Below, piece after piece: positions 16,595 to 20,584 of a stretch of DNA of 64,000 bases (its first letter is position 1; each line of letters opens with the position of its first letter). Where the stretch lies: the NCBI GenBank assembly GCA_938023035.1, contig CALIDI010000012.1, positions 62,001 to 126,000 on the forward strand, given 5' to 3'. A program made the position numbers and the translations under genes. The stretch comes from an uncultured Leptolyngbyaceae cyanobacterium. Its GTDB lineage: Bacteria > Cyanobacteriota > Cyanobacteriia > Leptolyngbyales > Leptolyngbyaceae. The notes under the pieces are model-generated. The model was not told where the DNA came from, searched no databases, and worked only from the letters and a program-made list of their open reading frames with translations.

Positions 16595-16966
16595 TCATTC
16601 TTTATCTTTTGGGTAGCTTGTGATGCCATATAAGATAAACCCGACACAAACTAATGTGAATGTCAATAATCCCAAAAAGATGCTCAATCCAGTTGAGGCA
16701 AACTCTCCTTCACCGTAAGTTACAGTTTCAGTAGGCTTTACATAATTACTCAAAACTGACCAATCGATATCGATTCCCTCTAGTAGAATTGAGGCATTAT
16801 AGAGTTGCAAAATGATAACTAAAAACAAGAAAAACAACAGCATTAATATTGCCATTAGTGGAGTGGTTCCCCATCCAGGGGCTACTTTTCCTGCTTCTGA
16901 ATTAATCTGCCTCAGTATGTACTGAATCGGTGCAACCCGTTTGGGGGGATATTTGATTTTTTCCAT
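16595..16966 (-). CDS. psbH2: Photosystem II subunit PsbH, far-red paralogue with an extra C-terminal helix
   Basis: Residues 1-73 are a PsbH homologue: a basic N-terminus, then [20 protein letters not shown], the membrane helix, and [15 protein letters not shown], matching the canonical end LLLE..D.DW. Normal PsbH stops near residue 65-67. This protein continues for about 50 residues through a linker ([14 protein letters not shown]) into a second hydrophobic helix (about 93-113) and ends YPKDKE. I do not recognise the added helix. PsbH stabilises the CP47/QB side of photosystem II, and psbB2 (CP47) is the gene just upstream. Confidence 0.88.
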
Positions 16967-17155: not shown

Positions 17156-18769
17156 TCAGGTTTCCAGGCTATCCCGCAACATGGGCACAGCCTTAGAAAC
17201 CGTTGCTGGTGCCGGGCGCGATTGGATGGCGGCAACAGGTTGCGTGAGCGGTTTGCGGGTCGTTCTGTCGCCCACCTTTTGGTAAATACCCCACTCAACT
17301 TGTTCCTCATCCAAATCGGGATCAATGCCAGCAAACACGTCACGGAAGAGTGTGCGGGTACCATGCCACAGGTGCCCAAAGAACCAGACGAGGGCAAAGC
17401 AGGCGTGGAAAAAGGCGAAGAACCCGCGATTGCTGGTGCGGAAAACACCATCAGAGTTATGAATCGTGCGATCAAATTCAAACGGTTCACCCAATTGCGC
17501 TAGACGCGCAAACTTCTTGACTTGAGCAGGCTCCGTGAAGGTTTGTCCATCCAGTTTGCCACCGAAGAAACTCACTGTTACGCCTTGTTGCTCCAAGCTG
17601 TACTTCGCTTCTGCGCGGCGGAAGGGAATATCTGCCCGGACGATGCCATCTTGATCGGTTAAAACCACTGGAAAGTTTTCAAAAAAATTAGGCATTCGTT
17701 GCACAGTCAGTTTTCGCCCTTCTTGATCCTGGAATACGGGATGTCCCAGCCATCTTTGGGCCACACCATCGCCATCGACCATCCGCCCAACTCGGAACAA
17801 GCCCCCTTTCGCGGGGCTATTGCCAACGTAATCATAGAATGCGAGTTTTTCTGGAATCGCTGACCAGGCTTCGGTTAAGGTTTTACCTGATGCCAGCCCG
17901 GTTTGAACTCGACGAGCAATTTCGTTGTGAAAGTAGTTTTGATCCCATTGGAAACGGGTTGGCCCCCAGAGTTCGATCGGAGTGGTGGCGGTACCGTACC
18001 ACATGGTAGCCGTCGCAATGAATCCGGCAAAAAAGAAGGTTGCCAGGGCACTGGCTAACACCGATTCAATGTTGCCCATGCGTAACCCCTGGTAAAGGTA
18101 CTCAGGTGGGCGAACATTGATGTGAAACAGTCCACCCAGAATTCCAACGATGCCAGCAGCGATGTGATGGGCAACTACGCCACCAGGGTTATGGGGGTTA
18201 AATCCGGCGGGTCCCCATTCGGGGGCAACAGGTTGGAGATGTCCGGTGAGTCCATAGGGGTCAGATACCCACATCCCAGGACCAAATACTCCTGTTAAGT
18301 GAAAGGCTCCAAAACCAAAGCAAAGGAGTCCTGCTAACAACAGGTGAATCCCAAAGATTTTGGGTAAATCCAAAACGGGTTGGTTGGTTCTTTCATCATA
18401 GAAGGTCGCGAGATTCCAGTAATTCCAGTGCCAGATGGCAGCGAGAAATTCGAGCCCAGAGAAGATGATGTGGGCGATCGCCACTGTTTCAAAAGTCCAG
18501 AAACCTGGATCAGTGACAGTCTCGCCTGTAATGCTCCACCCTTGCCATGAGTGAATGACCCCTAACCGAGCAACAAACGGCATGAGAAAACAACCTTGCC
18601 GCCACATTGGGTTAAGCACTGGATCACTGGGATCAAACAGGGCGAGTTCAAACAACAACATGGAACCTGCAAACCCAGCGCATAGGGCATTATGCATCAG
18701 GTGAACAGCAAGCAGTCGCCCCGGATCATTAATCAAAACCGTATGAACGCGATACCATGGCAGTCCCAT
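17156..18769 (-). CDS. psbB2: Photosystem II core antenna CP47 (PsbB), far-red paralogue
   Basis: A 537-residue chlorophyll-binding protein with six membrane helices and a large lumenal loop between helices V and VI. It starts [26 protein letters not shown], the standard CP47 N-terminus, and keeps the chlorophyll histidines of the helices ([49 protein letters not shown]). It is longer than typical CP47 (about 508-510) because of an extra tail after [19 protein letters not shown]. In far-red light this copy replaces PsbB and helps hold chlorophyll f. It lies between the frameshifted ORF and psbH2. Confidence 0.96.
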
Positions 18770-18803: not shown

Positions 18804-19153
18804 TTAGAGATGATAATGTTCTAGTTGTTTTGAATTTTGTTTTGAAATCTTGCAAAAGTTTGTCGACTGGAAGTTGCAGACATGTTGAACAGGTTGATAA
18901 TCTGGACAATCAATTGCTGCCTCAGTCAGTGCATCGGTTGGATGAACTGTACATTTGAGCTGGTAGTTTTCTGTGAAAATCGACAGTTTGAACAGGGGAT
19001 TTGATGCATTCGTTGAGCATAGATCATCGTATCCTGACTCAGTGCCCAGAGGTTCGCAACTATCATGAAACAAATAATCCAAGCACTGACAAAGCAAATT
19101 GGAATCAGGTAGGTGTGGAGTTGATGAAACGTGAGGAGCAATGGATGCAGCAT
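18804..19153 (-). pseudogene. Small four-cysteine membrane protein, frameshifted
   Basis: Between psbC2 and psbB2, one frame starts MLHPLLLTFHQLHTYL, with one membrane helix (about 14-37), and runs to MHQIPCSNCRF. A second frame continues FTENYQLKCTVHPTD...AIDCPDYQ. Adding one base to the four-A run at 18976-18979 (T run on the coding strand) joins them into about 116 residues with the pattern CX2CX10CX14C. The joined sequence resembles small cyanobacterial proteins with IPCSNC..FT..Y.LKCTVHP motifs as I remember them; the four cysteines suggest a metal site. It is either a damaged gene or a one-base sequencing error. Confidence 0.65.
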
Positions 19154-19171
19154 GAGGACAAACCAAAACCA

Positions 19172-20584
19172 TTAATCTAAGCTGGGCATCTTGAGGACGG
19201 GTTCATTATCACGATTAATACCCCGGACAAACCCTGCCGCCGCCGCTCTGGCACGCCCAGCGTGCCAAAGATGACCCACGAGAAACAAAAAGGCGAAGAT
19301 AAAATGCACGGCGGCTAGCCAACTGCGAGGCGAAAGGAAGTTAAAAGAGTTGGGTTCTGTGGCGACCCCCCCCACAGAGTTGAGCGAACCGAGGGGGGCA
19401 TGGGTCATATATTCCGCTGCTCGCCGCACTTGCCAGGGTTGGATATCGTTCCGCAGTTTATCGAGATCTAAGCCATTGGGGCCGCGCAGGGGTTCCAACC
19501 AAGGGCCGCGAAAATCCCAAAATCGCATGGTTTCACCGCCAAAGATGATTTCTCCTGTGGGCGATCGCATCAGGTATTTTCCTAAGCCAGTCGGGCCTTG
19601 GGCAGAAACCACATTCGCACCTAATTTTTGATCTCTCACTAAAAACGTGAGTGTCTGGGCTTGAGATGCTTCTGCGGCTGTGGGGCCATAAAACTCGCTG
19701 GGATAAGCCGTATTGTTGAACCAAATAAAGGCCGTTGCAATCAATGCTTGACCACAAATATTGCCTAAACTTTGGGCTAAATAAGCTTCACCTGACCAGG
19801 TAAAGATTCGCTCTGTCCACTTAAATGGCGTTGTAACAATGTGCCAGATGCCACCTAAAATGAGTAAGCCACCGACATAAATATGACCACCGACAATATC
19901 TTCCAAGTTGTTGACTCCAATAATCCACCCCTGTTGACCGTAGGGCGATCGCACCAGATAACCAAAAATCGTGAGTGGATTCAAGGTAGGGTGCGAGATC
20001 AACCGTATATCACCACCACCCGGGGCCCAAGTGTCATATAGACCTCCCCAAAACATGGCTTTGCCAACAAACAGGAGAGCGGCCACCCCCAGCGAGATTA
20101 GATTAAACCCCAAGATTGTGGTGATTTTATCTTTATCTGTCCAATCAAAATCAAAGAATCCAGTTAGGCGATCAGGCCCCTGAAGAGAATGGTAAATGCC
20201 ACCGAAGCCTAGCACCGCCGAGCCGATGAGATGCACAACCGCAATCACAAAGAAGGGGAAGGTATTCACTACAACACCACCCGGCCCAACACCAATGCCT
20301 AAGGTGGCGACGTGGGGCATCAGGATCAATCCTTGCTCATACATTGGCTTTTCTGGGACAAAGTGAGCCACCTCAAATAGCAGCATTGCCCCGGCCCAAA
20401 ACGCAATCAGTCCAGCATGGGCGACATGTGCCCCTAATAATCGACCGGATAGATTCATGAAACGGGCATTTCCTGCCCACCAAGCGTAACCTGTTGAAGC
20501 TTCATCCCGACCGTCGCGTTGCGTCGTGATGCCACGTCCAGGTGTGGAAATGATTCGAATCGAAGGACTAAAGGGCGTTTCCAC
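19172..20584 (-). CDS. psbC2: Photosystem II core antenna CP43 (PsbC), far-red paralogue
   Basis: Six-helix chlorophyll protein of photosystem II that also supplies a ligand to the Mn cluster. Conserved stretches include [46 protein letters not shown] and, at the end, [23 protein letters not shown]. The start is set at GTG 20584 (VETPFSPS), which has a strong AGGAGG site about 8 bp upstream inside psbD, the conserved arrangement of psbC. This gives 470 residues and a 17-bp overlap with psbD. An ATG at 20620 ([10 protein letters not shown]) gives a 53-bp overlap and is the older annotation choice. Confidence 0.95.

What the first reader, a model, noticed from the sequence alone, without database searches (positions are those of the whole stretch)
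16595..16966. PsbH2 carries a second, unexplained membrane helix
PsbH is normally about 65 residues with one helix. This copy adds about 50 residues with a second hydrophobic helix and a stromal-type basic tail. It could be a fusion with an unknown small photosystem II subunit and might occupy a new site next to CP47 in far-red photosystem II.
Basis: partly seen in the sequence, partly recalled or inferred. Interest (0 to 1): 0.6.

Follow-up and report, generated by a model that had tools for sequence, protein, structure and literature searches.

The report
Fused PsbH2–PsbH2' photosystem II subunit
The extra membrane helix on this far-red photosystem II protein is real, but it is a small subunit (PsbH2') already described and already seen in a solved structure, here joined to its neighbour in one gene.

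Summary
On the minus strand (16966..16595) one 123-aa frame carries a normal PsbH domain (aa 17-62) and then a second hydrophobic helix (about aa 87-117). It is no frameshift: eight other genomes of a 388-genome sample carry the same fused frame. The extension is PsbH2', a far-red photosystem II subunit; it matches chain G of PDB 9T5T, so named (profile E 5.9e-12).

It is already in print. Gisriel et al. 2022 reported the second helix in 6 of 31 far-red PsbH sequences, and the stand-alone 48-aa form. A 2026 Nature Communications paper placed PsbH2' beside CP47 and PsbH2 and noted fused isoforms.

My tests agree with that model. CP47 residue 107 is Glu in 17 of 17 far-red CP47s whose genome has psbH2', Ser in 2 of 2 without it, Leu in 11 of 11 other CP47s read. 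A search for the Glu107 signature alone found psbH2' in 13 of the 13 loci (of 16) that reach it.

Likely role: packing against CP47 and PsbH2 to shield a chlorophyll f at site B617. Not known: whether the fused chain is cut, and whether fused or split came first.

The parts
16595..16966 (-). psbH2:psbH2' fused gene, 123 aa
   Evidence: PF00737; NF002728
16781..16918 (-). PsbH domain (aa 17-62) with transmembrane helix 1
   Evidence: Pfam match aa 17-62, E 1.6e-24; hydropathy
16709..16759 (-). linker (aa 70-86), presumed lumenal; fast evolving, nearly constant length
   Evidence: alignment of nine fused proteins; pN up to 0.59 between 7 of them; location inferred
16598..16708 (-). PsbH2' helix and C-terminal YPxD tail (aa 87-123)
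   Evidence: matches 9t5t_G from aa 83; T92, C107, Y118, P119, D121 invariant in the 18 PsbH2' aligned; in 3 of 4 further copies the Asp is Asn (L076, L080, L082)
17156..18769 (-). psbB2 (far-red CP47), partner; Glu107; 537 aa with a longer C-terminal tail
   Evidence: TIGR03039 E 8.8e-282; residue 107 and tail

Best explanation
The ORF is a genetically fused PsbH2:PsbH2' of the far-red (FaRLiP) gene cluster. Its first half is far-red PsbH. Its second half is PsbH2', a single helix that, in the split form solved in Chroococcidiopsis thermalis, lies beside PsbH2 and CP47 (PsbB2). There it is proposed to cover the otherwise membrane-exposed chlorophyll f at site B617, whose formyl group is held by Glu107 of PsbB2, so that this red-most pigment (749 nm) stays bound. 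In the fused form the chain must cross the membrane twice: N-terminus in the cytoplasm, linker in the lumen, C-terminal YPKDKE back in the cytoplasm. Shown here: the two hydrophobic stretches, homology to PsbH2', conservation, the link with Glu107. Taken from the 2026 paper, for the split form: position, and the proposed B617 role. Inferred: that the fused chain takes the same place, the topology, and that it is not cleaved.
For: Extension matches 9t5t_G 'PsbH2'' (E 3.7e-7; profile of 6, E 5.9e-12, next hit E 0.46). Published position and role read. Of 388 sampled genomes 21 match at E 0.01 or better; 18 are credible (9 fused, 9 split) and 3 (E above 0.003, stops inside) I dropped as chance (frames read). 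In the 9 split genomes psbH2' starts 17-555 nt after the psbH2 stop. CP47 residue 107 is Glu in 17 of 17 psbB2 of genomes with psbH2', Ser in 2 of 2 without, Leu in the 11 other CP47s read. A search with the Glu107 DNA signature alone gave 16 loci, all psbB2; 13 reach far enough downstream and all 13 hold psbH2'. Nine of the 13 carry a psbH2' identical to one in the sample, 4 are additional. The psbH2'-less, Ser107 pair sits inside the split clade, so both were probably lost on that branch.
Against: No fused form is among the 39 PDB sequences matched (all PsbH chains there are at most 88 aa), so position and integrity of the fused chain are inferred. AlphaFold gave helices 35-64 and 86-117 but with low confidence (mean pLDDT 59, pTM 0.31), so the packing is not tested. 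The Glu107 link rests on related genomes, with only two lacking psbH2'; the signature search tests one direction only. The 2026 paper lists Glu, Gln or Ser as far-red residues at 107 and suggests a Chl f at B617 in PCC 7335 even without PsbH2'; the 2022 paper thought Chl f at site 617 unlikely.
Confidence: 0.87

Rival explanations
1. The fused chain is a precursor that is cut in the lumenal linker, so the mature complex holds PsbH2 and PsbH2' as two chains, just as in split strains.
For: The linker evolves fast (pN up to 0.59), and split strains show that two chains suffice.
Against: Linker length is nearly constant in nine fused proteins (total 121-123 aa). I saw no cleavage data in the papers read.
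Confidence: 0.2
2. The main job of PsbH2' is docking of far-red allophycocyanin, or excluding ordinary phycobilisomes, rather than holding the B617 chlorophyll.
For: Suggested as a further role in the 2026 paper, from a rigid-body model. Fused strains also have a longer tail on CP47 (9 of 9: 521-554 aa, against 509-512 in 14 of 14 other far-red CP47 read); that this tail is cytoplasmic is recalled.
Against: The partner residue found here, Glu107, is at the chlorophyll site. Most of PsbH2' lies in the membrane.
Confidence: 0.2
3. Helix 2 is a frameshift, read-through or assembly artefact with no function.
For: The neighbouring small gene between psbC2 and psbB2 does look frameshifted in this window.
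Against: Eight other genomes with the same fused frame, purifying selection, and a solved homologue.
Confidence: 0.01

Closest known systems
PsbH2' of Chroococcidiopsis thermalis PCC 7203 (PDB 9T5T chain G; PMC13396731)
   Same: Homologous helix with the YGEGxF...TYPxD pattern, encoded next to psbH2 in the far-red cluster, CP47 with Glu107.
   Different: There it is a separate 48-aa chain; here it is joined to PsbH2 by a linker of about 17 residues.
Two-helix FRL-PsbH of Aphanocapsa GSE, Leptolyngbya and Elainella strains (PMC9325196, section 3.7)
   Same: The same kind of fused two-helix protein. The copy in Aphanocapsa sp. GSE-SYN-MK-11-07L (L083) has the same sequence as L012, which is 61% identical to the window protein.
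   Different: Only another strain.
PsbH2 of Synechococcus sp. PCC 7335 (PDB 8EQM chain H)
   Same: Same far-red PsbH half.
   Different: No second helix, no psbH2' found in the genome, CP47 Ser107 (G171, whose PsbH2 is identical to 8eqm_H).

Membership tests
PsbH (PF00737) | Match over the curated cut-off | tested here: met
   85.7 bits against 24.6, aa 17-62; NF002728 106.3 against 65
Far-red PsbH2 | Far-red residues Ala-Pro-x-Gln-Tyr near the N-terminus and an N-terminal extension of 6-7 residues (from PMC9843442 and PMC9325196) | tested here: met
   A12 P13 Q15 Y16 in the window protein, and 7 more residues before the NSE motif than in this genome's ordinary PsbH (the papers number Ala11 in PCC 7335)
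Far-red PsbH2 | Lies in a FaRLiP cluster | tested here: met
   PsbD, PsbC, PsbB and PsaF neighbours, a second Photo_RC gene, ApcE-like linker and phycobiliprotein genes, a phytochrome kinase and two response regulators; far-red gene names such as psbD3 and rfpA are recalled
PsbH2' | Sequence homology to 9T5T chain G | tested here: met
   E 3.7e-7 single, 5.9e-12 profile
PsbH2' | Single hydrophobic helix directly after psbH2 | tested here: met
   Hydropathy 2.53; predicted helix 86-117 (low confidence)
PsbH2' | Occupies the site next to CP47 and PsbH2 and lines Chl f B617 | not testable with these tools
   Needs a structure of this complex; Glu107 is present in the window's CP47

The most novel reading that the evidence does not exclude
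In the fused lineages the two-helix PsbH2, the longer proline-rich tail of CP47 (PsbB2) and, in 8 of 9, an extra four-cysteine membrane protein between psbC2 and psbB2 form one lineage-specific module, for instance a distinct docking face for far-red allophycocyanin, that split lineages lack.
Probability: 0.1. Interest if true: 0.45.

Novelty: already known. Interest (0 to 1): 0.13.

Why it matters
It adds one more fused member of a known family. The link between psbH2' and CP47 Glu107, seen also in a search that used the CP47 signature alone, independently supports the published idea that PsbH2' belongs to the B617 chlorophyll f site. A fused strain would be a good place to test that idea, because the subunit cannot be lost separately unless it is cut.

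Tried and rejected
Origin from an ancestral PsbH C-terminus (a hypothesis of the 2026 paper): I read the PsbH of nine genomes that looked deep-branching by their low CP47 scores (families f14, f33, f30; that they are deep-branching is my inference). None of the nine has a second helix; some end in a short ...GYGYYP-like tail (L069 was first read in a wrong frame and corrected). This neither supports nor excludes the hypothesis.

Relation to another small PSII subunit: no Pfam or NCBIfam family matches PsbH2' convincingly (18 members scanned against each; best E 0.0012 and 0.027, to scattered families, none a photosystem subunit).

Direction of change (fusion or fission): CP47 trees give the fused group 74/74 and 79/64 support (bootstrap / SH-aLRT), so the direction stays open.

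AlphaFold model: too weak for a fold search, so none was run.

Obligate far-red growth: considered because the assembly shows only one psbB and one PsbD-like match; dropped because ordinary psbH, a second psbC and a second psaA-psaB pair are present and that psbC lies at a contig end.

Papers seen only as listings or passages: searches (listings); PMC9843442 and PMC11931122 (passages). I made no claim that anything is absent from print.

Full report
Observation. It sits between psbB2 (CP47, 18769-17156) and a psaF gene (16518-16036), in a far-red light photoacclimation cluster. Pfam PsbH covers aa 17-62 (E 1.6e-24). After it comes a linker and a second hydrophobic stretch (Kyte-Doolittle 2.53 over aa 94-112, against 3.08 for helix 1). 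The tail YPKDKE has no net positive charge.

What the extension is. A phmmer search of solved structures matched aa 83-122 to chain G of 9T5T, named PsbH2' (E 3.7e-7). A profile of six homologous extensions gave E 5.9e-12, and the next hit was E 0.46. Pfam and NCBIfam hold no model that fits it: 18 members scanned against each, only scattered weak hits.

Relatives. In the window's order 6 of 42 genomes match the extension. In a sample of 388 genomes of the class, 21 match at E 0.01 or better. I count 18 as credible; the other three have E above 0.003 and internal stops and were dropped. Nine are fused (families f1, f24, f26) and nine are split (all family f13), with the split gene starting 17 to 555 nt after the psbH2 stop. 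The fused proteins are 121-123 aa. Aligned, the 18 PsbH2' share an invariant Thr, Cys, Tyr-Pro and Asp; in three of four further copies found later the Asp is Asn. Between seven of the nine fused genes, helix 2 is under purifying selection and the linker is looser.

Independent test of the published role. The 2026 paper assigns a chlorophyll f at site B617, hydrogen-bonded by PsbB2 residue 107. In the same 388 genomes a CP47 search separates 19 far-red psbB2 (977 bits or more) from the rest (941 or less). Residue 107 is Glu in 17 of 17 whose genome has psbH2', Ser in 2 of 2 that have psbH2 only, and Leu in 11 of 11 other CP47s read; one of those 11 (L049) is an extra copy of unclear kind. The eighteenth psbH2' genome, G259, had no psbB2 among the 19; its psbH2 lies near the end of a piece of contig, so psbB2 may simply be missing. 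One of the Ser107 genomes has a PsbH2 identical to 8EQM chain H, so it is Synechococcus PCC 7335 or a very close strain. I then searched a collection of about 85,000 species genomes for the Glu107 DNA signature alone. It gave 16 loci, all psbB2. Three are cut off before psbH2' could be seen (L084, L086, L089). All other 13 hold psbH2', 5 fused and 8 split. Nine of these carry a psbH2' identical to one in the sample; Hydrococcus rivularis, two Fischerella strains and the MAG SU_1_2 are additional and all split. The signature is exact, so it misses variants, it tests one direction only, and records close to the window may be left out.

History. In CP47 trees the psbH2-only pair lies inside the split clade (96/94 and 98/94), so psbH2' and Glu107 were probably lost on that branch. 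Fused genes group with only 74/74 and 79/64 support, so whether fused or split came first is not settled. Gisriel et al. argue for fission.

Prior work. PMC9325196 (section 3.7 read in full; passages elsewhere): 6 of 31 far-red PsbH have a second C-terminal helix, thought ancestral; the 48-aa gene downstream of psbH2 is its likely fission product. The same section thought a Chl f at site 617 unlikely. PMC13396731 (abstract, introduction, results and discussion, two methods sections and half the reference list read): PsbH2' seen by cryo-EM in C. thermalis next to PsbB2 and PsbH2, proposed to stabilise Chl f B617 (749 nm); fused isoforms in Leptolyngbyales and Elainellales, citing Antonaru et al. 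2025 (not held, not read). PMC9843442 was seen as passages; it describes PsbH2 of PCC 7335 with a single helix.

Verdict. A correct observation of a known thing: a fused PsbH2:PsbH2'. What I add is small: one more member, the Glu107 test, and the finding that the fused clusters also have a longer CP47 tail (9 of 9 at 521-554 aa; 14 of 14 other far-red CP47 read at 509-512 aa).

Noticed in passing
window 18804-19172, minus strand: A small protein (one helix, then four conserved Cys) lies between psbC2 and psbB2 in 8 of 9 fused far-red clusters and in none of the 10 others read; in the window it is spread over two frames that switch near 18980, so the 122-aa ORF there is a mixed-frame artefact or a broken gene. 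The family is widespread (279 of 388 genomes at E 0.001) but two members tested had no good Pfam or NCBIfam match.
   Followed up: partly
window 17156-18769, minus strand: PsbB2 has a longer, proline-rich C-terminal tail (537 aa), shared by all nine fused strains (521-554 aa) and absent from the 14 other far-red CP47 read (509-512 aa).
   Followed up: partly
Extra psbB genes with Leu107 and a four-Cys gene just upstream also lie in L049 and L114. PsbD identities did not tell whether it is far-red-like.
   Followed up: partly
genome G000 around window 17156-18769: The assembly shows only one psbB (the far-red one) although ordinary psbH, a second psbC and a second psaA-psaB pair are present; that psbC lies at a contig end, so an assembly gap is likely.
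   Followed up: partly
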